From Ruminococcus sp. (lineage in GTDB: Bacteria; Bacillota; Clostridia; Oscillospirales; Ruminococcaceae), in the NCBI GenBank assembly GCA_017960805.1, contig JAGCYM010000080.1, positions 1-46,565 of the forward strand: a stretch of 46,565 nt of DNA, written 5' to 3'. This document shows, in pieces, positions 22,264 through 42,951 of the stretch. Made by a program: the position numbers and the translations under genes. How positions within the stretch are numbered: position 1 is the first letter of the stretch; each line of letters starts with the position of its first letter. The notes under the pieces are model-generated. The model did not search any database, was not told where the DNA came from, and saw only the letters and a list, made by a program, of their open reading frames with translations.

Positions 22264-22292
22264 TTGCTATTTCCTTAATAATGTGATAGAAT
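22264..22292 (+). promoter_or_regulatory. promoter of the TIR / RCK-RyR operon
   Basis: TTGCTA (22264-22269), 17-base spacer, TAGAAT (22287-22292). A moderate match, followed by AAGGAGATAAGAC and the ATG at 22331. Confidence 0.55.
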
Positions 22293-22330
22293 TATCGTGT
22301 ATGTATATTTTTACACTAAGGAGATAAGAC

Positions 22331-25300
22331 ATGGAATACAAATACAAAGCCTTCATAAGCTACCGTCATCTTGAGCCTGATATGCAGGCCGCTGAAAAGC
22401 TTCAGAAACTTCTTGAAAGCTATAAGCCGCCGAAGAATATCGGCAAGACCAAGGAGAACTGGCGAATCTTCCGCGATGTATCAGAACTTCAGTCAAGCAG
22501 TGATCTAAGTGAAGACATTAAAAACGCAATTGAAACCTCTGAGTATCTCATAGTCATATGCTCACCTAAGTATACAGAATCAAAGTGGTGCATGCAGGAA
22601 CTTTCACGTTTCCGTGAGCTTCACGACAACACTAACAAGAATATCATAACTCTTCTCGTAAGCGGAGAACCCCAGGAGTCATTCCCAGAAGAACTCACTT
22701 ATACCGAGATGACCACCACTAACGAAAAAGGTGAGGAAGTTAAGGTAAAAGTTGAAGTTGAGCCCCTTGCTGCAAATATAAAAGCTGACACTCTCAAGGA
22801 ATCAATGAAGAAACTCAACACTGAATATCTTCGTATAGCAGCTCCTCTTCTCGGATGCGACTTCAACGATCTGTTCCAGCGTGAAAAACGTCGTGAAGCC
22901 GCTAAAAGAAGAAGGATATTCGGCGGAGTTTCAGCAATCCTTTCGCTGATAACTGTTATCAGTGTAGCTTCTGCTGTTACCATAAGCGGTAAAAACGTAC
23001 AGATAAAGAAACAGAACAGTCAGATCAAAGAACAGAATGAACAGATAGCGCAGAAAAACAGTGATCTGCTTATCGAAAATGCTGGTCACCTGGCAGTAGA
23101 ATCTGAAAATCTTTACAAAGAAAACAGCCTTATTCCAGCTATTCAGAAAGCAGTGGCAGCTCTGCCCAAAGACGGAGAAGACAAGCCTGTACTTCCTGAA
23201 GCTGAATACGCGCTTTCACGAGAACTTGGAATGTTTTCTCCCAGCCAGATTGTTCCTCAGCTTTCCCTGAAACATGAATGCTCAGTTGAAAAGCTCTCAT
23301 TTATGGGTGGAGGAAGATCTATAGTAACACAGGATGCCAAAGGAATATACTTCTGGGACGCTGAAAACGGAAAACTAATAAAGAAGATTTTAGCATCAGA
23401 CAGTGAATTCGCTTCAGCAAACGGCGGAAGCTCCAACGAACTAACCGCGTACTTTGACATCAGCGATGACAAAACAGGCACATATTTCAATTCCACAGCA
23501 ACTCCAAGCAGTGTTTTTTACGAGAACAGTTCAGTTTTCAACAAAATATATACTGACTTCGTCCATTCTGTAGAGGATGAAGAACCAGGAACCGGCGGCG
23601 ATGTATATATATATAATTCTGACAGCACTCTCTGGTGCCTTGATGGAGCAACCGGAGAGATAAAATGGAAAGTAGCTCCTTCTGAAAAAGCATTCATTTA
23701 CAATGATATTATTTTTGATGATCAGTATATTCTCCGTCCTTATCAGAACAAGACTGTCATGCCCAGCGGATTATCATTTATGGGAAATGATATGTACCTG
23801 GAGATACTCGATCGAGAAACAGGTAATGAAGTTGACACTGTTAAGATAACTTCCGCTTCAGGTTCATCTTTTGGATTTTTCGTGAATAATAAAATACAAA
23901 CAGTTAAAGATGGAGTTATATACATATACAATGACAATGATATTACTGTAAGAGCTTATGAAATAAAAGATCACGATATCGAACTTAAAAGTGAAGTATC
24001 CGCAGAAGCTCCTAACCCCGGAGGAGTACGTTCTGTTACAACACAGTTCATAGGTGATGACCCGATTATAACATCCTGCAGCGTTCTTGCTTTTGATCTC
24101 AGGACTTACTTCAGCCGATATGACAAAGACCTCAAGGAGGAAAAGTGGAAAACAGAATTACCTGTTAACTACATGAGTGAAGGCAGAATATTCTTTTTGC
24201 CTTCTGCAGATTCAGGATATAAATCAGATGTTCTCGCAATAATTACAAAGCGCACGCTCTCCCTGATAAATTATGAAAACGGAGAAATCATCAGATCCAT
24301 ACCGCTTGATGATGAGATTATCGATGCTTCATTTACACGTAACGGACTCATTATGTTTACTGTAAAAAGCGGCAGCGAATATGTTGTTAGTCTGAATCAG
24401 CTTGCCTCCAGCAATACATCCGACTATGCTGCTTTCAGAGTTCAGCAGATGAATACAGCTTTGTCGCTCTGCAGCTACAGCTGTGGCAGATACGTTACAG
24501 CTGAGAACTATTCCAATACTGCATATATCCAGTATGTTGACCAGAATCCGATGTATACTGATATTGACACAGGTGAATACATGTACAGCCGCAAAGTCCT
24601 TGCAGTATCAAGTAACGGAAATTATGCAGCTGTATCTTCAACATATTACCCTAACGGAGAATACAACGGAAGCAGCAAGCTGGTCCCGCACCTGTACATA
24701 TATGATGTCGGAAACAAAAAACTAAATGAAGTATCTGATCTTCAGGGTTATGAGGTTAACGGCGCAGCATTTATCGGTAATGACAAGCTCATTGTTAATG
24801 CGAAATCAAGACAGGCAGATGGAACTTCTTCTCTTGATGATACAACAATGTGCATAGATGTTAAGAACGGTACATTCAACGAAATCAGCGATGCTCCATC
24901 AACAAAGCGTTCAAGCGTCACGATGACTTCCACTGACAAAGGAGTCTTCTATCTTTCTGATTCAGAAAATAATATCGTGTTTGTTGAAGGAAATGGGAAG
25001 TTCACTTCCTGGGCAACATTTGATAATGCTTCCTATTCATTAGACAAGCAGATAATAAACCAGCTGTTCGCCGTATCCGATAACAGAGTTGCACTATATG
25101 CTCAGTTCAACAATGAGGAAAACAAAACTGCACTTATTATTCACGACTTCAGTATTAATCAGCACCTAACTCTTGATTTTGATCTTTCAACAGACTCAGG
25201 TCTTGAGGTGAAGCGCATCTTCTGGCAGAACAGCAATACTGTGGGAGTATTCTTCAGCAATCGTACAGTATCATTATTTGATGCATCTTCAGGCAAGCTC

Positions 25301-25756
25301 CAAACAACAGTTTCTCTTGATGAAACAAGCCAGGAACCGATATCAGTAGCTCCGTTAAGCGAAGACACTTTCGCAGTTCTCTGTCGTGACTCACGAATAT
25401 ATGAAATGAGCAACGAAGGATTTACAGGCAGAAGCTGCCGCCTAGACTTTACTCATGAAATTGAGAACAACATCCGTGAAGCTGACAGTTCCGACGCAGG
25501 CAAGTTTGAAATAAAGCCATCATCAGATACTAACCGCGTATTTGCAATCTGGAACGGATCTCAGGCGTGGCTCATTGATAACAGTAGATTTGTCAACCGT
25601 TTCAGAATAGACAATTTCGCTGCTGCCCCGGCTGATCGTGATATAGTTTTCATAGCTGATCCGACCAGCAACAAAGCTGGATATTTCCCGATATACTCCA
25701 CTCAGCAGCTTCTTGACGCAGCCAAGAAATACCTCGCTGCTCTCGGAGAAGCGTGA
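22331..25756 (+). CDS. membrane-anchored TIR domain protein with propeller-like C-terminal region
   Basis: A 1141-residue protein. Residues 5 to about 125 are a TIR domain: AFISYR, FRDVSEL, VICSPKYTESKWCMQEL. The Glu of the WCxxEL motif (residue 90) is where TIR NADases carry their catalytic Glu. A basic segment (QREKRREAAKRRR, about 183-195) leads to one membrane helix (about 197-217), then a Gln/Lys-rich coiled coil (220-248). Residues about 315-1141 form repeated beta-strand blades with WD/PQQ-like phrases (IYFWDAENGKLI, LWCLDGATGEIKW), so a beta-propeller sensor outside the membrane is likely. TIR domains cleave NAD or make nucleotide signals in antiviral systems such as Thoeris. The next gene follows after 13 bases. 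Activity and role are inference. Confidence 0.8.
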   Translation: MEYKYKAFISYRHLEPDMQAAEKLQKLLESYKPPKNIGKTKENWRIFRDVSELQSSSDLSEDIKNAIETSEYLIVICSPKYTESKWCMQELSRFRELHDNTNKNIITLLVSGEPQESFPEELTYTEMTTTNEKGEEVKVKVEVEPLAANIKADTLKESMKKLNTEYLRIAAPLLGCDFNDLFQREKRREAAKRRRIFGGVSAILSLITVISVASAVTISGKNVQIKKQNSQIKEQNEQIAQKNSDLLIENAGHLAVESENLYKENSLIPAIQKAVAALPKDGEDKPVLPEAEYALSRELGMFSPSQIVPQLSLKHECSVEKLSFMGGGRSIVTQDAKGIYFWDAENGKLIKKILASDSEFASANGGSSNELTAYFDISDDKTGTYFNSTATPSSVFYENSSVFNKIYTDFVHSVEDEEPGTGGDVYIYNSDSTLWCLDGATGEIKWKVAPSEKAFIYNDIIFDDQYILRPYQNKTVMPSGLSFMGNDMYLEILDRETGNEVDTVKITSASGSSFGFFVNNKIQTVKDGVIYIYNDNDITVRAYEIKDHDIELKSEVSAEAPNPGGVRSVTTQFIGDDPIITSCSVLAFDLRTYFSRYDKDLKEEKWKTELPVNYMSEGRIFFLPSADSGYKSDVLAIITKRTLSLINYENGEIIRSIPLDDEIIDASFTRNGLIMFTVKSGSEYVVSLNQLASSNTSDYAAFRVQQMNTALSLCSYSCGRYVTAENYSNTAYIQYVDQNPMYTDIDTGEYMYSRKVLAVSSNGNYAAVSSTYYPNGEYNGSSKLVPHLYIYDVGNKKLNEVSDLQGYEVNGAAFIGNDKLIVNAKSRQADGTSSLDDTTMCIDVKNGTFNEISDAPSTKRSSVTMTSTDKGVFYLSDSENNIVFVEGNGKFTSWATFDNASYSLDKQIINQLFAVSDNRVALYAQFNNEENKTALIIHDFSINQHLTLDFDLSTDSGLEVKRIFWQNSNTVGVFFSNRTVSLFDASSGKLQTTVSLDETSQEPISVAPLSEDTFAVLCRDSRIYEMSNEGFTGRSCRLDFTHEIENNIREADSSDAGKFEIKPSSDTNRVFAIWNGSQAWLIDNSRFVNRFRIDNFAAAPADRDIVFIADPTSNKAGYFPIYSTQQLLDAAKKYLAALGEA

Positions 25757-25769
25757 AAGGAAACGTTAA

Positions 25770-27728
25770 ATGAATAATAACAAAAGCCGAAAAAGAACCA
25801 CACGGCTGATATTCCTGCTAGCGTTGCTGTCGTTCCTGATAGCAACGGCTCAGGGACTTAGGTACTATCAGAACTATGAAACCTTCTTCAAGTTACTGCT
25901 TGTGCTGCAGAACAGTATCAATGCCTTCGGATTCAAAGCTTCTGTAACAATAAAAGATACTGTTGCCTTTATAAAGAATGATCCTTCTCCGCTGAATAAA
26001 GGCATAGGCTATGCATACTGCATTGCAGTATTCACCGCACCTTACTGCACGATTTCTTTCATATACAAGTTCCTGGAAAAGATTCTTCGTTTCATAATCT
26101 TCTTCCGGAGGAACAAAAACTGCAGACATATCGTGGTATTCGGATACAACAACGATATCCAGTCAATGCTAAAAAACAACACTTTCAATCCAAAGAAAGT
26201 GTGTGTTCATATTGTTACTGCAGAAACCATTAACAGTGAGGAAATATACCGCTTGAACAAATCGGGGTATATTGTTCACTCCGCAGATGTATTGAAAGCA
26301 AAAGATACCGAGCTTTCCTCTATTCTTGCAAAGACGCATATTGAAAGCGCAGAAAACATTATTCTCTTTGAAAACTCTTCAATTCGCAACTTCTCACTGT
26401 TACAGCTGTTCAAACTTAATGAAAACGACAATGAATGCAAGATCAAACTTGCGACAGGAACTAAAGTATCATGCAGATGCGAAGAGGAAGGTATAGGCAG
26501 ACTCATAGCTGAATACTACAACAGTGCTGCCGGAACTGATGTGCTCTTTGATCTCGAACTTGTTGGTCTGCCTGAAATGCAGATACATAAAATGTACTCT
26601 GACCACCCACTTCACACATTCTATAATGGCACTGATATTCCACTGAAAGACTGGACCGTTCATCTACTCGTGGCTGGCTTTGGTCAGCTTGGACAGCAGG
26701 CAGTTTTACAAGCTATGAACCTTGGAGTCGTTCACGAAAGCAACCGCATCACCATCGATGTCTTCGACTGCAGTATCAAGGCAAAAAAAGCTGTTTTCCT
26801 GAATCAGCTTAATCCGGAATCCTTCGATATTTCTGATGACAGGGTTACACTTAAAAGCTCAGTAGCAGACGGAGTACTTGAAATAGTCTTTCACGAACTC
26901 AATGTTTCTCATAACAACTTTTATGATCTTATCCGCAGCAAAATAAAAACTGATCCATATACATATGCGGTCATAGCACTTGAAAATATTGATTTATCTG
27001 TAAACTGCGCAATGCAGTTAGAAGAACTATTCTCGGAAAATAACCTGAAGCTTCCGATCCTGATGCGTATGGACACTGACAGAAGACTTGCAGGATATAT
27101 TTCAGCAGAAAACAGTGCACTTGCCGACGTAAGTCTTATTGATGACAGAAGTGTCGTGATAACACTTGAAATGATTATTAACCGAGCTATTGACCGAAGC
27201 GCTAAAGAGTACAATCACTTCTACAATAACATAGCACTCATCACTGCAGACGAAGAAGGAACTGCCAATAATTCTGACGAGGATCCTGAACAGGAATGGA
27301 ACCGTCTGCGTCTCTTCCGTCGCTCCTCAAGCAAGGCTGCAGCTTATCATGACGAAGTTAAAGATGATATCCTCCCTAAACTCGCATCAGAAAATAATGA
27401 GGATCTTACAACAAAACTAGAAAGCCTTATCGGAAGAAATGGTTCCATAATGAAATATACTGGCTCAGCATGGCAGATGATCGGTTCAGAAGAAGAACTG
27501 CTCGAAGCATTAAAAAAAGACAGCTTTGCATATAATCTTGCTTCTCTCGAACACCGCCGTTGGTGTTGCTACATGGCTTCAATTGGTTGGCGACCAGGAG
27601 AACGAAGCGACAAGTTCAGACGAAATCCATGCCTTGTTACTCAGCAAAAGCTCATGGAAACAAAACCTGAAATGTGCAAATATGATCTGATGTCACTTAT
27701 GGCAAGATACAAAAAAACAAACGGATAA
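25770..27728 (+). CDS. 2-TM protein with tandem RCK/TrkA-N-like domains and a C-terminal RyR domain
   Basis: A 652-residue protein co-transcribed with the TIR gene; AAGGAAACGTTAA precedes the ATG. Membrane helices lie at about 12-33 and 78-112, separated by an external loop. No K+ selectivity filter (GYG) is seen between them. Two Rossmann-like domains follow. One starts at RHIVVFGYNND (119-129), with a degenerate nucleotide loop. The other starts at VHLLVAGFGQLG (297-308), with an intact GxGxxG. This is the layout of RCK gating domains. Residues about 508-650 match the bacterial RyR domain, with LASLEHRRW (590-598), GWRPG (606-610) and a Pro/Leu tail. RyR domains are proposed to bind nucleotide-like ligands. 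A membrane effector or sensor for a TIR-derived nucleotide is my inference. Confidence 0.75.
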   Translation: MNNNKSRKRTTRLIFLLALLSFLIATAQGLRYYQNYETFFKLLLVLQNSINAFGFKASVTIKDTVAFIKNDPSPLNKGIGYAYCIAVFTAPYCTISFIYKFLEKILRFIIFFRRNKNCRHIVVFGYNNDIQSMLKNNTFNPKKVCVHIVTAETINSEEIYRLNKSGYIVHSADVLKAKDTELSSILAKTHIESAENIILFENSSIRNFSLLQLFKLNENDNECKIKLATGTKVSCRCEEEGIGRLIAEYYNSAAGTDVLFDLELVGLPEMQIHKMYSDHPLHTFYNGTDIPLKDWTVHLLVAGFGQLGQQAVLQAMNLGVVHESNRITIDVFDCSIKAKKAVFLNQLNPESFDISDDRVTLKSSVADGVLEIVFHELNVSHNNFYDLIRSKIKTDPYTYAVIALENIDLSVNCAMQLEELFSENNLKLPILMRMDTDRRLAGYISAENSALADVSLIDDRSVVITLEMIINRAIDRSAKEYNHFYNNIALITADEEGTANNSDEDPEQEWNRLRLFRRSSSKAAAYHDEVKDDILPKLASENNEDLTTKLESLIGRNGSIMKYTGSAWQMIGSEEELLEALKKDSFAYNLASLEHRRWCCYMASIGWRPGERSDKFRRNPCLVTQQKLMETKPEMCKYDLMSLMARYKKTNG

Positions 27729-27739
27729 GTATAACTATG

Positions 27740-27787
27740 AAACGGCATCTTCCCGGATCAATAATCAGGACGATGCCGTTTCCTTTT
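27740..27787 (+). terminator. terminator of the TIR / RCK-RyR operon
   Basis: A perfect 10-bp stem (27740-27749 with 27772-27781) is followed by CC and a T-run to 27788. It marks the operon as two genes. Confidence 0.8.
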
Positions 27788-27855
27788 TGATTTGGAATCA
27801 TTCAAAAAAGATTGATGTAAAAATTCCGCCTATTCAAAAACATACAGTTCCTTGC

Positions 27856-35272: not shown

Positions 35273-38200
35273 TTATACTATGCCGTTGTTATTAATTGCG
35301 GTATTATGCTCACCGTAAGCCTCGTTCTTAACGACCTTAACGTGACTGTAGCAGTCCATACCTGTACCTGCAGGAATAAGCTTACCGATGATAACATTTT
35401 CCTTAAGACCAAGGAGCTTATCGCTCTTGCCTCTGATAGCAGCATCTGTAAGAGCCTTAGTAGTCTCCTGGAATGAAGCTGCGGACATAAAGCTGTCAGA
35501 GTTAGAAGATGCCTTTGTGATACCCTGAAGCACTGGAGTAACCTGTACAAGCTGTACATCATACTCACCTGAATCAATACGTGCCTGAAGTTCCTCATTG
35601 ATAGCATCGATCTCCTTGCGGTCAACAAGATTACCAGGAAGCAGATAACTGCTGCCAGAATCCTCAACCTTAACCTTACGGAGCATCTGACGAACGATAA
35701 CTTCGATGTGCTTATCGTTGATATCAACACCCTGTAAACGGTAAACCTTCTGAACTTCATTGATGATGTAGTTCTGAACGTCGTGAATTCCAAGGATATT
35801 AAGAATATCAGCAGGATAAATATTACCTTCAGTGAGACGTGTTCCCTTGGTGATCTGCTCACCTTCCTGAACACGGATCTTGAGGTTGTAAGGAATCATG
35901 TAGCTTTCGCTCTCACCTGTCTCATCGTTAGTTACAATGATATTACGGGTTGTCTTAACCTCTTCAATAGTGATTCTACCAGCGATCTTAGAAAGGATAG
36001 CAGCACCCTTAGGACGTCTGCTCTCGAAGAGTTCCTCAACACGTGGAAGACCCTGTGTGATATCTTCAGCGTCTGCAGAAGCAACACCACCGGTATGGAA
36101 GGTTCTCATGGTAAGCTGTGTACCAGGTTCACCGATTGACTGAGCTGCGATTACGCCGACAGCCTCACCGACTGATACAACATTATTGAATGCAAGGTTA
36201 GCACCATAGCACTTAGCGCACACACCGTTTCTTGCTCTACAGTTGAGTACGGAACGGATAGTAATTCTCTCAACGCCTGCATCAATGATCTTCTTTGCAT
36301 CAGCATCATTGATGAGCTTATTCTTGGAAACGATGAGTTCTCCTGCCTCGTCACGGAGATCCTCAGAAAGGAATCTGCCAACAAGACGCTCTGCGAAAGG
36401 CTCAACGATTTCGTTTCCGTTCTTGATCTCATAAACCTCGATACCGTCTGTAGTACCACAGTCTTCCTCACGGATGATAACGTCCTGAGATACATCAACA
36501 AGACGACGTGTCAGGTAACCAGAGTCAGCAGTACGGAGAGCTGTATCAGCAAGTCCCTTACGAGCACCACGAGAAGCGATGAAGTACTCGAGGATGTTAA
36601 GACCTTCACGGTAGTTAGCTCTGATCGGGATCTCGATAACAGCACCGGAAGTATTAGCGATAAGTCCACGCATACCAGCGAGCTGACGGATCTGAGAGAT
36701 AGAACCACGGGCACCGGAGTCAGCCATCATCCAGATAGGATTGTAACGGTCGAAGTTCGCCTTCAGTGCAGCTGTAACCTCATCATTGGTATTTGTCCAG
36801 AGTTCGATTACCTGCTTGGACTTCTCCTCAGCGGAGATGTATCCATACTCATAATCCTCTGTGATACGTGCAACTTCTTCATCAGCTCTGGAGAGGATCT
36901 CCTTCTTCTGAGGAGGAATTGAAGCATCACAAACGGCAACGGTAAGAGCTGCTCTTGTGGAGTATTTATATCCGAGAGCCTTGATACGGTCAAGTACTTC
37001 GGAAGTAGTTGTTGTGCCATGAATCTTTATGCAGCGCTCGATAATATCAGAAAGCTGCTTTTTACCAACGAGGAATGCAACCTCGAGATCGAACTGCTTG
37101 TCAGAATTTGTTCTGTCAACGTAGCCAAGATTCTGAGGAATATTCTCGTTGAAGATAAGACGGCCAACAGTTGCATCAATGATCTTGGATACCTTCTTGT
37201 CGCCGATATCCTTAGTGATCTTTACCTTGATATTAGCATGGAGTGAAACATCATGCTCATAATAAGCCATGAGTGCCTCGTTAACATCACGGAATACCTT
37301 GCCTTCACCAGGCTCGCCAGGCTTATCCATTGTCAGATAGTAAGAACCAAGTACCATATCCTGTGAAGGAACAGCAACAGGCTTACCGTCTGAAGGTTTG
37401 AGCAGGTTGTTAGCAGCAAGCATGAGGAAACGTGCTTCTGCCTGAGCTTCTGCTGAAAGCGGAAGATGTACAGCCATCTGGTCACCATCGAAGTCAGCGT
37501 TGAACGCAGAACATACGAGCGGGTGGAGCTTGATTGCACGTCCTTCAACAAGTATCGGCTCGAATGCCTGGATACCAAGACGGTGGAGCGTAGGAGCACG
37601 GTTGAGCATTACAGGATGATCCTTGATTACATCCTCAAGAGCATCCCATACCTTGTTGTCGGCACGGTCTATGAGTTTTCTTGCTGACTTGATATTAGCA
37701 ATTGCCTTCTTGTCAACAAGTCTCTTTAATACGAAAGGCTTGAAAAGCTCAAGAGCCATTTCCTTAGGAAGACCACACTGATACATCTTCAGCTCCGGTC
37801 CTACTACGATAACAGAACGTCCGGAGTAGTCAACACGCTTACCGAGAAGGTTCTGACGGAAACGTCCCTGCTTACCCTTGAGCATATCAGAAAGTGACTT
37901 AAGAGCACGGTTACTTGGACCTGTAACAGCTCTGCCATGTCTGCCGTTGTCGATAAGTGCGTCAACGGCTTCCTGAAGCATACGCTTCTCATTTCTTACA
38001 ATGATATCAGGAGCATCAAGTTCAAGCATTCTCTTAAGACGGTTATTTCTGTTGATAACACGTCTGTAAAGGTCATTAAGGTCTGATGTAGCGTAACGTC
38101 CGCCGTCGAGCATGATCATAGGACGGAGATCTGGCGGGATTACAGGTACTACATCGAGAACCATCCACTCAGGCTTATTTCCTGAGAGACGGAATGCCTC

Positions 38201-38995
38201 TATTATCTGAAGTCTCTTCAGGAGCTTAACCTTCTTCTGTCCTGAAGGAAGTCCAACAAGCTCATTCTTGAGATCATCAGATACTATTTCGATATTATTT
38301 TTCCACTCAATGTCAGTGAGCTCAGCAAACTTAGCGCATTCCTCACACTCACACTCAAGAGGATTGTTGAAACATTCAACGTGGCTGCTGCCGATATTGA
38401 TCTTACCAGTCTCGATGAGTCTGTTCTTCTGTGTATCATATCTGGCAGGATCATACTCATTGAGAAGCTTCTTTATAGCCTCAGCACCCATTTCAGCCTT
38501 GAAATCATCGCCGTACTTCTCAACATATGAGAGGTATTCCTTTTCAGAAAGGAGCTGCTTCTTCATGAGCTCAGTGTTGCCAGGATCAGTTACGATGTAC
38601 TTTGTGAAATAAAGTACTTCCTCAAGGCGCTTCTGTGATACCTCAAGCACCTGTCCGATGCGGGAAGGTGTTCCCTTAAAGTACCAGATATGAGATACTG
38701 GAGCTGCAAGCTCGATGTGACCCATTCTCTCACGGCGTACTCTTGCTCTTGTAACCTCAACGCCGCAGCGATCGCAGACTTTACCCTTGAAACGGATCTT
38801 CTTGAATTTACCGCAGTGACATTCCCAGTCCTTGGTAGGTCCAAATATTCTTTCGCAGAAAAGACCGTCTCTCTCTGGCTTCTGTGTTCTATAGTTAATA
38901 GTCTCAGGTCTTTCAACAACGCCATATGACCAGCTTCTGATCTGTTCGGGCGAAGCAAGACCGATCTTTATTGATTCAAAAGTCGTGTTTTCCAA
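35273..38995 (-). CDS. rpoC: RNA polymerase subunit beta'
   Basis: A 1240-residue catalytic subunit. The N-terminal zinc site ([19 protein letters not shown]), the active-site [12 protein letters not shown] that holds Mg2+, the bridge-helix region [17 protein letters not shown] and the second zinc site ([13 protein letters not shown]) are intact. The length is normal for Firmicutes without the large insertions of proteobacteria. It follows rpoB after 53 bases and is co-transcribed with it. Confidence 0.98.
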
Positions 38996-39048
38996 ACTGC
39001 TACCTCCTGCAATTTATTACCGATTCATTACGTATACCGACTGTTTTA

Positions 39049-42000
39049 TCAGCCTTCGTCTCCTTCATCATCGAGGTCGAAGCTGTCGAATACATCGTCG
39101 CCATCTTCCTCGTCATTGAAGTCGAGGTCATCTTCAGATTCGTCGTCGAAGCTGAACTCATCATCCTTATCGACACTGTCGAATTCATCGCCATCATCGA
39201 AACCGAAGCCTGCCTCACCAAGTTCATCATCAGAGTAGCTTGTTTCATCAGCAGTATCCTCATCAGCATAGGAATCTCTTGCAGGAATAGGATCTTCATC
39301 GAAGTTCTGCTTGAGGTCAATTTCCTCCTGATTGCTGTCGAGTACCTTAACATCGAGACAAAGCGACTGCATTTCCTTGATGAGTACCTTGAATGACTCT
39401 GGTATACCCGGAGTAGGAACGTTCTGTCCCTTTACGATAGCCTCATAAGTGTTTACACGTCCGATAGTATCGTCAGACTTAACTGTCAGGATTTCCTGGA
39501 GAGTATAAGCTGCACCATAAGCCTCGAGGGCCCAAACTTCCATCTCACCGAAACGCTGACCGCCGAACTGAGCTTTACCACCCAGAGGCTGCTGAGTTAC
39601 GAGAGCGTAAGGACCAACAGAACGTGCATGGATCTTATCATCTACGAGGTGGTGGAGCTTGAGGTAGTACATATAGCCCACGGTTACACGGTTATCAAAT
39701 TTCTCACCTGTACGTCCGTCGTAGAGAGTAAATTTACAATCATCTGTGAATTCAAGAGCCTTGGGGTTGATTACCTTATCCATTGCCTTGAGTTCAAACA
39801 TATCATCTTTATGCTCCTTAGCATAATCATTTGCCATCTTGAAGCATTCACGTATATCATCCTCGTGAGCACCATCGAATACAGGTGTCATGATATGCCA
39901 TCCAAGAGCTTTACATGCCATACCAAGATGTACTTCGAGCACCTGTCCGATATTCATTCGTGAAGGAACACCGAGAGGATTGAGTACGATATCAAGAGGT
40001 GTACCATCTGGGAGGAAAGGCATATCCTCCTCAGGAAGAATACGTGAAACAACACCCTTGTTACCGTGACGGCCGGCCATCTTATCGCCGACTGTGATCT
40101 TACGCTTCTGAGCAATGTAGCAGATAACACGCTTGTTTACACCTGCGCTGAGTTCATCACAGTTCTCACGTGTGAATACCTTGACATCAACAATAACGCC
40201 AGCCTCACCATGAGGAACCTTAAGTGAATTATCACGAACTTCTCTTGCCTTCTCACCAAAGATAGCACGAAGAAGTCTCTCTTCAGCTGTAAGTTCAGTT
40301 TCACCCTTAGGAGTAACCTTACCAACAAGGATGTCGCCGGATGTAACCTCAGAACCAATACGGATAATACCATTTTCATCGAGGTTTGCAAGAGCGTCAT
40401 CACCAACGTTAGGAATATCACGTGTGATCTCTTCAGGTCCGAGCTTGGTGTCACGGCACTCAATCTCGTATTCTTCTATATGAACTGATGTAAATACATC
40501 TTCTCTTACAAGACGTTCGTTAAGAAGAACAGCGTCCTCGTAGTTGTAACCTTCCCATGTCATGAAGCCGATGAGTGCGTTCTTACCGAGTGAAATTTCT
40601 CCGTCTGCGGTAGCAGGACCATCAGCGAGAACCTGGCCCTTCTTGACTTCCTCACCTGCTGTGACGATAGGACGCTGATTTACACATGTACCCTGGTTGG
40701 AACGCTTGAACTTGATAAGCTCATACTTGTGTTCAACGCCCTCAGAATCAATCATGTGGATCTTGTCTGCATCAACATATGTTATCTTTCCGTCATAATC
40801 AGAAACTACACATACACCTGAGTCAACAGCTGCCTTGTATTCCATACCTGTTCCGACAAACGGACGCTCTGTCTTAAGAAGCGGAACTGCCTGTCTCTGC
40901 ATGTTTGAACCCATGAGAGCACGGTTAGCGTCATCGTTCTCAAGGAATGGAATCATAGATGTAGCTACAGATACGACCATCTTAGGAGATACATCCATGT
41001 AATCAACCTTTTCACGGTCTATTTCAAGTATCTGCTCACGGAATCTAGCGTTTACACGCGGTCTCTCGAACTTGCCATCTTCTGTAAGCGGCTCGTTCGC
41101 CTGTGCAACAACGAAGTTGTCCTCAGTGTCAGCAGTCATATATACTACTTCATTTGTAACAACACCTGTTGCCTTATCAACTTTACGGTAAGGAGCTTCT
41201 ACGAAGCCATACTCGTTGATTCTAGCAAATGTAGCCAGATAGGAAATAAGTCCGATGTTAGGACCTTCTGGGGTCTCGATAGGACACATTCTTCCGTAGT
41301 GGCTGTAGTGAACGTCACGAACTTCGAATCCGGCACGGTCTCTTGAAAGACCTCCAGGTCCGAGAGCTGAGAGACGTCTCTTATGTGTAAGTTCAGCAAG
41401 AGGGTTATTCTGATCCATGAACTGTGACAGTGGCGATGAACAGAAGAACTCCTTCATAGCTGACGAAATAGGTCTGATATTTATAAGGGTCTGTGGAGTA
41501 AGAGTATTTACATCCTGTGTCTGGATGTTCATTCTCTCGCGGATACCACGCTCCATACGAGCATAACCAATACGGAACTGGTTCTGGAGAAGCTCACCAA
41601 CAGAACGGATACGTCTGTTGCCAAGGTGGTCGATATCATCAACAGTACCAACGCCCTCGCAGAGGTTGATGAAGTAGCTGATAGTTGCAAAGATATCATC
41701 AAGAATGATGTGCTTAGGAACGAGCTCATCAACACGCTTCTTGATATTCTCCTCTATTTCTTCAGCATCAGCAGAATTCTCAAGGATCTCACGGAGCACC
41801 TTGAATGAAACCTTCTCGTTGATGCCATACTTATCAGTATCAAAATCGACATAGCCCTTGATGTCTACCATGCCGTTACCGATGATCTTGACATTCTTCT
41901 CAACGAAGCGGATCTGTGTTTCACCACGGTCATTTGTGAAATACTCCTTGGCTTCAACGGTAACAAATGCGCTGTAAACACCAGCCTGCTCAATCTCGCA

Positions 42001-42951
42001 AGCCTTGTCGTAGCTTATTGTCTCGCCAGCCTCAGCCATTATCTCACCTGTCATAGGATTGATAACAGGTTCTGAAAGAGTACGTCCTGAAAGACGTGTA
42101 GCTATACCAAGCTTCTTGTTGTATTTATATCTTCCGAAACGGCAGAGATCATATCTCTTAGCATCGAAGAAAAGATTATTGAGGTGTGTAACCGCACTCT
42201 CGACTGTCGGAGGCTCGCCGGGACGGAGCTTTTTATATACGTCGATAAGGGCGTCAGAATTGTTCTTTGTCTGATCCTTCTGAAGGATTGTCTGTCTGAG
42301 TCTTTCGTCATCACCGAAGAACTCGAAGATCTCCTCATCGGAACCTATTCCGAGAGCACGGATGAATGTTGTTATCGGAATCTTTCTGTTCTTATCTATA
42401 CGGACATAAACGATGTCGTTTGAGTCCATTTCATACTCAAGCCAAGCACCACGGTTCGGGATAACAGTAGTATTGAACAGATCCTTACCTGTCTTATCCT
42501 TCTCGAACGCATAGTAAACACCTGGAGAACGAACAAGCTGTGAAACAATAACACGCTCAGCGCCATTGATAACGAAGGTTCCGCTGTCAGTCATGAGCGG
42601 GAAATCGCCCATGTATATCTCGCTCTCGCTTACAGCGCCTGTCTCCTTGTTGCAAAGAGTAGCAGTAGCCCTCATCGCTACCTGATATGTAGCGCCTCTG
42701 GACTTACACTCTGCAAGGCTGTACTTGGGAGTCTCATCGAATCTGTAGTCCTTAAAGTTGAGGACGAGGTTACCATTGTAATCAGTGATCGCGGTCATAT
42801 CGCGGAACACTTCTCTCAGTCCCTCTTCTCTGAACCACTTATACGAGTTCTTCTGTACCTCGATAAGGTTTGGCATCTCTAGAGGCTCGGTAATCTTACC
42901 GAAACTCATTCTGACGTTTTTTCCCAGCTGCTTAGGTGTTACATTCACCAT
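39049..42951 (-). CDS. rpoB: RNA polymerase subunit beta, with long acidic tail
   Basis: A 1300-residue subunit. The rifampicin region is present ([26 protein letters not shown]), as are [17 protein letters not shown], the catalytic [13 protein letters not shown] and the C-terminal [18 protein letters not shown]. After the normal end near residue 1210 there is a tail of about 85 residues made mostly of Asp, Glu, Ser, Phe and Gly. AAGGAGG precedes the ATG. A consensus promoter about 170 bases upstream drives rpoBC; rplL does not adjoin it in this window. Confidence 0.98.

What the first reader, a model, noticed from the sequence alone, without database searches (positions are those of the whole stretch)
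22331..27728. Two-gene TIR-propeller / RCK-RyR membrane operon, a candidate NAD-derived signalling system
Seen: a TIR domain with the SxWCxxEL Glu, one membrane helix, a coiled coil and a large beta-propeller-like part. Thirteen bases later comes a 2-TM protein with two RCK-like Rossmann domains (the second with intact GxGxxG) and a C-terminal RyR domain. Promoter and terminator bound just these two genes. Known: TIR domains can cleave NAD or make signalling nucleotides, RCK domains bind nucleotides or ions to gate membrane proteins, and RyR domains have been proposed as nucleotide sensors. Inference: the propeller senses an outside cue, the TIR makes a nucleotide, and the RCK-RyR protein responds at the membrane. 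I know of no characterised system with this pair.
Basis: partly seen in the sequence, partly recalled or inferred. Interest (0 to 1): 0.85.

Follow-up and report, generated by a model that had tools for sequence, protein, structure and literature searches.

The report
TIR enzyme paired with RyR membrane receptor
Some gut and rumen bacteria carry a two-gene unit that probably makes an NAD-derived signal with one protein and reads it with a membrane protein bearing the nucleotide-binding domain known from animal ryanodine receptors.

Summary
In detail: a 1141-aa TIR / one-helix / tandem-propeller protein and, 13 nt later, a 652-aa membrane protein with two Rossmann-like domains and a C-terminal RyR domain. 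The genes are neighbours in 29 of 38 homologous loci and, at 21% identity, in Fusobacterium, another phylum. TIR E90 is invariant in 28 of 28 aligned sequences, RyR pocket H595, W598 and D639 in 37 of 37. Five of the 9 other loci have a different TIR gene nearby. In a class-wide search 7 of 23 RyR loci have a TIR gene within 1.5 kb (0.06 expected); a methyltransferase control gave 0 of 69. A 2026 preprint shows phage RyR domains bind or cleave the TIR products 2'cADPR and 3'cADPR (PMC13232231). Best reading: the TIR makes an NAD-derived nucleotide that the RyR domain reads to act at the membrane. Catalysis, ligand, channel activity and cue are untested, and a key preprint on TIR systems could not be read. 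New variant of TIR signalling; high interest.

The parts
22264..22292 (+). possible promoter TTGCTA-17-TAGAAT with TG before the -10
   Evidence: consensus match 9 of 12; such matches are no more frequent than in shuffles
22318..22323 (+). ribosome-binding site AAGGAG of the first gene
   Evidence: read directly in the sequence
22331..25756 (+). TIR - membrane helix - coiled-coil-like helix - tandem propeller protein, 1141 aa
   Evidence: ORF; Pfam; model
22331..22735 (+). TIR domain, residues 1-135; E90 codon at 22598-22600
   Evidence: Pfam TIR_2 3.4e-14; E90 invariant in 28 of 28 aligned sequences, the window's included
22922..22990 (+). single membrane helix, about residues 198-220
   Evidence: hydropathy segment 194-223
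22991..23116 (+). coiled-coil-like helix, residues 221-262
   Evidence: model helix 208-263
23246..25753 (+). tandem WD40-like beta propellers, residues 306-1141
   Evidence: model, pLDDT mostly 70-94; Foldseek hits to WD40 proteins; PQQ_2 1.7e-6
25757..25763 (+). ribosome-binding site AAGGAAA of the second gene, in the 13-nt gap
   Evidence: read directly in the sequence
25770..27728 (+). membrane - Rossmann - Rossmann - RyR protein, 652 aa
   Evidence: ORF; profile search of PDB sequences; model
25794..26105 (+). membrane part: helix about 9-33, short helix 38-53, helix 74-112
   Evidence: hydropathy for the first helix; model for the others, block pLDDT 40-78
26115..26645 (+). first Rossmann-like domain, residues 116-292 (FGYN motif)
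   Evidence: model; G125 and N127 invariant in 37 of 37 aligned sequences
26646..27194 (+). second Rossmann-like domain, residues 293-475, GxGxxG at G303-G308, D333
   Evidence: model; these residues invariant in 37 of 37
27510..27725 (+). RyR domain, residues 581-652; pocket H595 (27552-27554), W598 (27561-27563), D639 (27684-27686)
   Evidence: profile hits to PDB RyR chains; pocket invariant in 37 of 37
27739..27788 (+). intrinsic terminator: 11-bp stem with inner stems, then CTTTTT
   Evidence: fold of 27730-27800 at -23.6 kcal/mol

Best explanation
A two-component signalling unit in which a membrane-anchored TIR enzyme makes an NAD-derived nucleotide (a cADPR isomer or relative) and a second membrane protein reads that nucleotide through its RyR domain and acts at the membrane, probably by opening an ion path. 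Steps: (1) the tandem WD40 propellers of the first protein, placed outside by the charge pattern around its single helix, change state on a cue (inferred); (2) this brings cytosolic TIR domains together so that E90 cleaves NAD (inferred from family knowledge; only conservation is shown); (3) the product binds the pocket of H595, W598 and D639 in the RyR domain (inferred from phage and animal RyR structures; only conservation and genomic linkage are shown); (4) the two Rossmann-like domains couple binding to the membrane helices and change membrane permeability, for growth arrest, cell death or a protective response (inferred). Phage defence is the likeliest role, an envelope-stress response the next (inferred).
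For: Adjacency in 29 of 38 homologous loci, spacing -11 to +19 nt counted to the start of the tblastn match. Same gene order 3 nt apart in Fusobacterium vincentii, another phylum. Among the 24 genus genomes both genes occur in the same 6 and neither in the other 18; in one of the six they lie on separate contigs. Flanks of 26 pairs are mostly different, while the two proteins diverge in step: distance correlation 0.93 over 25 pairs, 0 of 2000 permutations as high. Different TIR proteins near the same RyR family in 5 of the other 9 loci. TIR_2 within 1.5 kb of 7 of 23 class-wide RyR loci, 0.063 expected, P about 1.5e-13. In 5 of 7 further genomes of the phylum a TIR_2 match lies within 2.1 kb of a RyR hit (an eighth, G834, had a weak match outside the RyR domain and was not followed). 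Control N6_Mtase: 0 of 69 matches near a TIR_2 match. Rows of membrane RyR protein, second RyR protein and TIR gene in G362, G429, G513 and, in another order, G651. E90 invariant 28 of 28, RyR pocket 37 of 37, HxxW in 26 of 26 selected RyR domains. Preprint PMC13232231: RyR-domain proteins bind or cleave 2'cADPR and 3'cADPR through H75, W78, H100 and D117.
Against: No biochemistry. The RyDEP phosphate-contacting residue H100 is N in the window's clade, H in L043-L046 and T in L051, so the ligand or its grip may differ. Sixteen of the 23 class-wide RyR loci have no TIR_2 match within 3 kb. Of 54 membrane RyR proteins labelled for, 16 had no TIR neighbour seen in the stretch held. Some RyR-bearing genomes have no TIR_2 match at all: G342, G489, G494, G236 and G240, G735 and G851; some of these are incomplete. 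Propeller-TIR relatives occur without a detected RyR in 17 of 30 genomes. The unit is rare: it was in 2 of 197 family genomes, the window's own included. The TIR part of the model has pLDDT mostly under 50, so its pocket could not be inspected. No potassium-channel filter is seen between the helices, and the membrane part is modelled with low confidence. The fold search for the second protein was never accepted.
Confidence: 0.66

Rival explanations
1. The RyR domain is an off-switch: it hydrolyses or soaks up the TIR product, as phage RyDEP proteins do, and the membrane protein limits or resets signalling instead of executing it.
For: The RyDEP catalytic pair H75 and D117 is kept as H595 and D639 in 37 of 37 aligned sequences; RyDEP uses these residues to cleave cADPR isomers. 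Small free-standing RyR genes sit beside TIR genes.
Against: Here the RyR domain is fused to a membrane and double-Rossmann protein, which suggests coupling rather than degradation; in the preprint 6 of 8 tested homologues bound the signals but none of these eight cleaved them, so the residues do not predict hydrolysis.
Confidence: 0.13
2. The TIR does not make a messenger: it depletes NAD or is a scaffold that contacts the second protein directly, and the RyR domain senses ordinary adenine nucleotides such as ATP, ADP or NAD itself.
For: Some TIR domains deplete NAD or only scaffold (general knowledge). The animal RyR R12 domain binds AMP-PCP and ADP (abstract of PMC12627627). TrkA responds to ADP and ATP (start of the abstract of PMC6987127 in a search listing).
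Against: TIR proteins of different make-up recur beside RyR genes, which is easier to explain by a diffusible product than by protein contact.
Confidence: 0.13
3. The linkage is only clustering of mobile or defence genes, and the membrane protein has an unrelated housekeeping role such as ion homeostasis.
For: Relatives without a TIR neighbour lie among what look like core genes (G270, G422, G464). The pair is patchy, 6 of 24 in the genus.
Against: The window's flanks are ordinary genes, and flanks mostly differ between genomes; N6_Mtase genes show 0 of 69 near TIR genes in the same genomes; spacing of -11 to +19 nt is operonic; the order recurs across phyla.
Confidence: 0.05

Closest known systems
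Thoeris anti-phage systems
   Same: A TIR protein that makes an NAD-derived signal, next to an effector that reads it; Pfam ThsB_TIR matches the first protein at 1.4e-7.
   Different: Thoeris models match the first protein weakly: PADLOC ThsB 1.7e-4, NCBIfam ThcB4 24.6 bits against a cut-off of 220.
RyDEP and other phage RyR-domain proteins (PMC13232231; abstract, results sections, passages and extended-data legends seen)
   Same: RyR domain with H, W and D pocket residues; those proteins bind or cleave TIR products.
   Different: RyDEP is a phage counter-defence protein; here a bacterial membrane protein sits beside the TIR gene, and H100 is N in this clade.
Animal ryanodine receptors and cADPR signalling
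   Same: A membrane protein carrying the RyR (R12) nucleotide pocket; a long-discussed link with cADPR (stated in PMC13232231).
   Different: Detected similarity is limited to the RyR domain; the membrane part and the Rossmann-like domains differ.
RCK/TrkA-gated channels and transporters
   Same: Membrane helices followed by two Rossmann-like domains, a layout known for RCK proteins (recalled).
   Different: No TrkA_N match in the window protein and no TVGYG-like filter (motif recalled); a RyR domain is added.
Bacterial TIR-WD40 proteins
   Same: The first protein belongs to this broad architecture; similar proteins were found in 30 of 291 class genomes, two of them weak hits.
   Different: A RyR-protein partner next door, which most of those lack (17 of 30 have no detected RyR at all).

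Membership tests
TIR domain (Pfam TIR_2) | profile match above the curated cut-off | tested here: met
   53.8 bits against a cut-off of 28
Catalytic TIR NADase | conserved catalytic glutamate in the SxWCxxE region | tested here: met
   E90 invariant in 28 of 28 aligned sequences; a Glu aligns in 12 of 12 TIR sequences of different types (a 13th row, L097, left out because the stretch used there missed most of its TIR match)
Catalytic TIR NADase | NAD turnover | not testable with these tools
   needs an enzyme assay
Thoeris | effector of a known Thoeris kind (SIR2, SLOG, macro and the like; list recalled) beside the TIR | tested here: not met
   no such Pfam match in the second protein; no PADLOC or NCBIfam match to it at E up to 1; effector types of the unread 2025 preprint could not be checked
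Thoeris | protection against phage through an NAD-derived signal | not testable with these tools
   needs phage challenge
RyR domain (PF02026) | profile match above the curated cut-off | tested here: inconclusive
   window protein 16.9 bits against 27.4; relatives L044 and L045 pass at 33.6 and 33.4, while L038, L046 and L051 fall below and L047 has no match; family profile finds PDB RyR chains
RyR domain (PF02026) | ligand residues equivalent to RyDEP H75, W78 and D117 | tested here: met
   H595, W598 and D639 in 37 of 37 aligned sequences
RyR domain (PF02026) | residue equivalent to RyDEP H100 | tested here: not met
   Asn in the window clade, His in L043-L046, Thr in L051
RCK / TrkA_N domain | profile match to TrkA_N | tested here: not met
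   none in the window protein; below cut-off in distant relative L091
RCK / TrkA_N domain | Rossmann fold with GxGxxG | tested here: met
   two alpha/beta domains in the model; G303, G305 and G308 invariant; no fold search could be run
Potassium channel | TVGYG-like selectivity filter between two membrane helices | tested here: not met
   no such motif between residues 33 and 78, read in the sequence
Tandem WD40 propeller | propeller fold | tested here: met
   model and Foldseek hits to WD40 proteins including the Utp21 tandem WD domain

The most novel reading that the evidence does not exclude
Bacteria have a general TIR-RyR signalling axis: TIR enzymes of many kinds make ADP-ribose-type messengers, and RyR domains are their dedicated receptors, fused to membrane Rossmann proteins as messenger-gated channels, with free-standing RyR proteins in some operons as built-in off-switches. 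The animal cADPR-ryanodine receptor pathway and the phage RyR counter-defence proteins would both be relatives of this axis. The window holds one of its most stable two-gene forms.
Probability: 0.4. Interest if true: 0.92.

Novelty: new variant of a known kind. Interest (0 to 1): 0.8.

Why it matters
Whether cADPR really acts through the RyR protein is a long-standing question in animal physiology. A bacterial operon that pairs a TIR enzyme, able by family to make cADPR isomers, with a membrane protein carrying a RyR pocket gives a small, expressible system in which this can be tested directly. It would also add a new class of effector to TIR-based signalling and suggest why phages carry RyR-domain proteins: they would be mimics of the host's own receptor.

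Tried and rejected
Promoter evidence was rejected: consensus matches were as frequent in shuffles. Viral origin: no relative of the second protein among the pattern matches in viral contigs and none of the first in phage records at 1e-5. Plasmid searches gave one useful hit for the second protein, the Fusobacterium record, and eight RyR records, of which I opened four: one lies in an island with a TIR gene (Priestia), two look phage-like by their neighbours (Acinetobacter, Endozoicomonas), one is unclear (Prescottella). Literature: eight searches listed no paper on this pair by title or abstract start. PMC7016017, PMC8195603, PMC7159879 and PMC9503650 were only searched for terms, and the passages shown held nothing on bacterial RyR domains. 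Not held: the 2025 preprint on systematic discovery of TIR-based systems, the 2015 survey of nucleotide-centric systems and a 2020 review; their titles come from the RyDEP reference list (the first) or recall (the other two). So absence from print is not established. The fold search of the second protein was never accepted. I considered calling the pair a Thoeris system and rejected it because no known Thoeris effector is present.

Limits of the counts. In the 38 loci the first gene is interrupted in L018 and L030 and cut by a contig end in L020; the second is interrupted in L041, partial in L037 and broken or partial in L052. One search counts TIR_2 matches only; at 500 bp it is 5 of 23. The N6_Mtase control covers 69 matches in 27 genomes, 53 of them in genomes that have a TIR_2 match; the nearest same-contig pair is 34 kb apart (G651); it was compared with the TIR positions by eye, not by script, and some of the 69 are weak matches. 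The phylum hits were found with a profile of the window's wider family, so they are less independent than those. The genome co-occurrence test includes two weak hits (G409, G426), species of one genus are not independent, and no matched negative control was run for it. In the tree 34 of 54 sequences were used, 20 near-identical ones being left out; long branches make the deep order unsure, and 'no TIR neighbour' means none seen in the stretch held, which is short for some.
Full report
What is there. The first ORF, 22331-25756, encodes 1141 residues; the second, 25770-27728, encodes 652; the gap is 13 nt and holds a ribosome-binding site. Both neighbours run the other way: a PfkB-type sugar kinase on the left and an ABC transporter on the right. 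A stable hairpin with a T run closes the unit at 27739-27788. A promoter-like site exists upstream, but such matches are as common in shuffled sequence.

Protein 1. The TIR domain matches Pfam TIR_2 at 3.4e-14 and also ThsB_TIR at 1.4e-7. One hydrophobic helix lies at about 198-220, with more net positive charge on its N-terminal side (6 K/R and 3 D/E in 15 residues before, 3 and 2 after), which would keep the TIR inside and put the rest outside (topology inferred). The AlphaFold2 model shows a helix from 208 to 263 and then beta structure to the end, mostly at pLDDT 70-94; the TIR part itself is mostly below 50, so its pocket cannot be judged from the model. Foldseek matches the model to WD40 proteins, including the Utp21 tandem WD domain. 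Over 27 aligned sequences the TIR has mean pairwise identity 0.82 and the propellers about 0.46: a constant output and a diverging sensor.

Protein 2. The model (mean pLDDT 84.9) shows helix 4-32, a short helix 38-53, helix 74-112, two Rossmann-like domains and a helical C-terminal domain. The C-terminal domain is a RyR domain: the family profile finds ryanodine receptor chains of the PDB, best a two-repeat chimera at 3.1e-8, RyR3 at 1e-4 and bacterial 'putative ryanodine receptor' entries at about 2e-3; some relatives pass the Pfam cut-off, though the window protein does not. In 37 aligned sequences, down to 30% identity, the invariant positions include E594, H595, R596, R597, W598, C599, G606, W607, Y638 and D639. 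H595, W598 and D639 stay invariant when the Fusobacterium protein and two members of another family are added (12 of 12). I call the middle domains Rossmann-like; RCK remains a plausible label, not a demonstrated one.

Conserved pairing. A scan of the species-genome collection with the second protein gave 38 loci, mostly titled Ruminococcus, with some other Oscillospiraceae, Lachnospiraceae and unplaced Clostridia. In 29 of 38 the first protein's homologue lies directly upstream on the same strand, with -11 to +19 nt between, counted to the start of the tblastn match. Among the 24 genus genomes both genes occur in the same 6 and neither in the other 18; in one of the six they lie on different contigs, so they persist together even unlinked. 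In a family-wide draw of 197 genomes only the window's own and G135 had the second protein, so the unit is rare. Flanks of 26 pairs mostly differ: the same flanking genes recur only in small groups of two or three loci, such as L028, L029 and L039, while distances in the two proteins correlate at 0.93 over 25 pairs, with 0 of 2000 permutations as high. The pair is the unit that is kept together.

Across phyla. A tblastn of the second protein against plasmid records found one record, a 2.1-Mb Fusobacterium vincentii replicon, at 21% identity over 87% of the query. Immediately upstream, 3 nt away, is a TIR-WD40 protein of 1018 residues. The same two-gene order thus exists in Fusobacteriota and Bacillota.

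Partner swaps. Nine of the 38 loci lack the propeller TIR next door. Five of them have another TIR gene nearby: L043, L044 and L052 a TIR protein of about 350-360 aa in convergent orientation, L047 a TIR gene overlapping the end of the RyR gene, L051 a TIR gene about 830 nt downstream (TIR_2 matches). L038, L045, L046 and L048 have none next to them in the stretch held; the genomes of L038 and L046 have no TIR_2 match at all, that of L045 has two elsewhere, and that of L048 has a propeller-type TIR elsewhere. L043 and L044 are near-identical and not independent.

Unbiased test. I searched Pfam RyR in 291 genomes of the class: 20 had it, with 25 matches, or 23 loci after merging neighbours. TIR_2 was then located in those genomes. 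Seven of 23 RyR loci lie within 1.5 kb of a TIR_2 match (5 within 500 bp); 0.063 are expected from the number of TIR matches and genome sizes, P about 1.5e-13; the other 16 have none within 3 kb. The window's own protein is below this search's threshold and played no part in the count. A search over 398 genomes of the phylum with a profile of the wider family gave eight further genomes with matches; one, G834, had a weak match outside the RyR domain and was not followed; in five of the other seven a TIR_2 match lies within 2.1 kb of a RyR hit. As a control for clustering of defence genes, N6_Mtase was located in the 27 genomes: 0 of 69 matches (53 of them in genomes with a TIR_2 match) lie within 30 kb of a TIR_2 match. 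At genome level, propeller-TIR relatives and RyR co-occur more than expected (10 observed, 2.0 expected, P 2e-6), with the caveats given under Tried and rejected.

A wider family. Four genomes (G362, G429, G513, G651) carry a membrane RyR protein, a second RyR protein and a TIR gene in a row; the second RyR protein is free-standing and about 100 aa in three and 730 aa in G651, where the TIR gene lies in the middle. In G435 a propeller TIR is divergent from a free-standing RyR gene. In G624 and G735 the membrane RyR protein is followed by a gene of about 600 aa that looks SLOG-like by eye, without test. Profile comparison joins the window's second protein to three other membrane RyR families at 99.6, 97.9 and 97.1% probability. 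In a tree of 34, TIR neighbours other than the propeller type need seven changes of the label; long branches make the deep order unsure.

Mechanism. The literature supplies the chemistry. A preprint of May 2026 (PMC13232231; [quoted passage not shown] With the genomic linkage this makes a TIR product the most likely ligand of the window's RyR domain. What it does next is inferred: Rossmann-like domains beside membrane helices suggest gated permeability.

What speaks against. The H100 equivalent is Asn in this clade. Many membrane RyR relatives and many propeller TIRs occur without a linked partner, and seven RyR-bearing genomes have no TIR_2 match at all. No potassium filter is visible. Nothing has been shown biochemically.

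Novelty. Eight full-text searches listed no paper on this pair, but the 2025 preprint on TIR-based systems and the 2015 survey of nucleotide-centric systems are not in the library, so it may already be described there. By kind it is a new variant of TIR-based signalling with a new type of reader.

Noticed in passing
L093:2152-7378, L095:1-4658, L101:3625-7114, L164:5312-10566: Gene rows of membrane RyR protein, second RyR protein and TIR in four genomes; the small free RyR protein resembles phage RyDEP in domain and could be a host-encoded off-switch.
   Followed up: partly
L126:3909-7504: A propeller-TIR gene divergent from a free-standing RyR gene; no Rossmann membrane protein was seen in the 12.5 kb held.
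   Followed up: partly
L165:2341-5972 and L166:4486-8130: Membrane RyR protein next to a protein of about 600 aa that looks SLOG-like by eye, in one case (G735) with no TIR_2 match in the genome; perhaps another signal maker for the same reader.
   Followed up: no
L083:4663-7341, L168:4519-8147, L169:3977-7602: A RyR protein of 578 aa without obvious membrane helix (possible HD-like part, by eye) directly beside a TIR gene.
   Followed up: partly
L097:1118-7982 and L100:489-8227: Islands with a phosphatase-like gene (by eye), a kinase-like gene (Pkinase match in L097), a free RyR gene and a TIR gene.
   Followed up: no
L145:653-8862 (Priestia plasmid NZ_CP128553.1): Pycsar effector family, cyclase-annotated, RyR and TIR genes in one stretch.
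   Followed up: no
L085:6420-9059: An 879-aa protein with a C-terminal RyR domain and what looks like an ATPase part by eye, in a genome without a TIR_2 match.
   Followed up: no
L136:6199-10338: Propeller-TIR gene followed at once by a 551-aa protein with weak YspA-type SLOG and DUF4231 matches (below cut-off).
   Followed up: no
window 35273-42951: RNA polymerase beta and beta-prime genes about 8 kb from the pair: it sits in an ordinary core region of the chromosome.
   Followed up: yes
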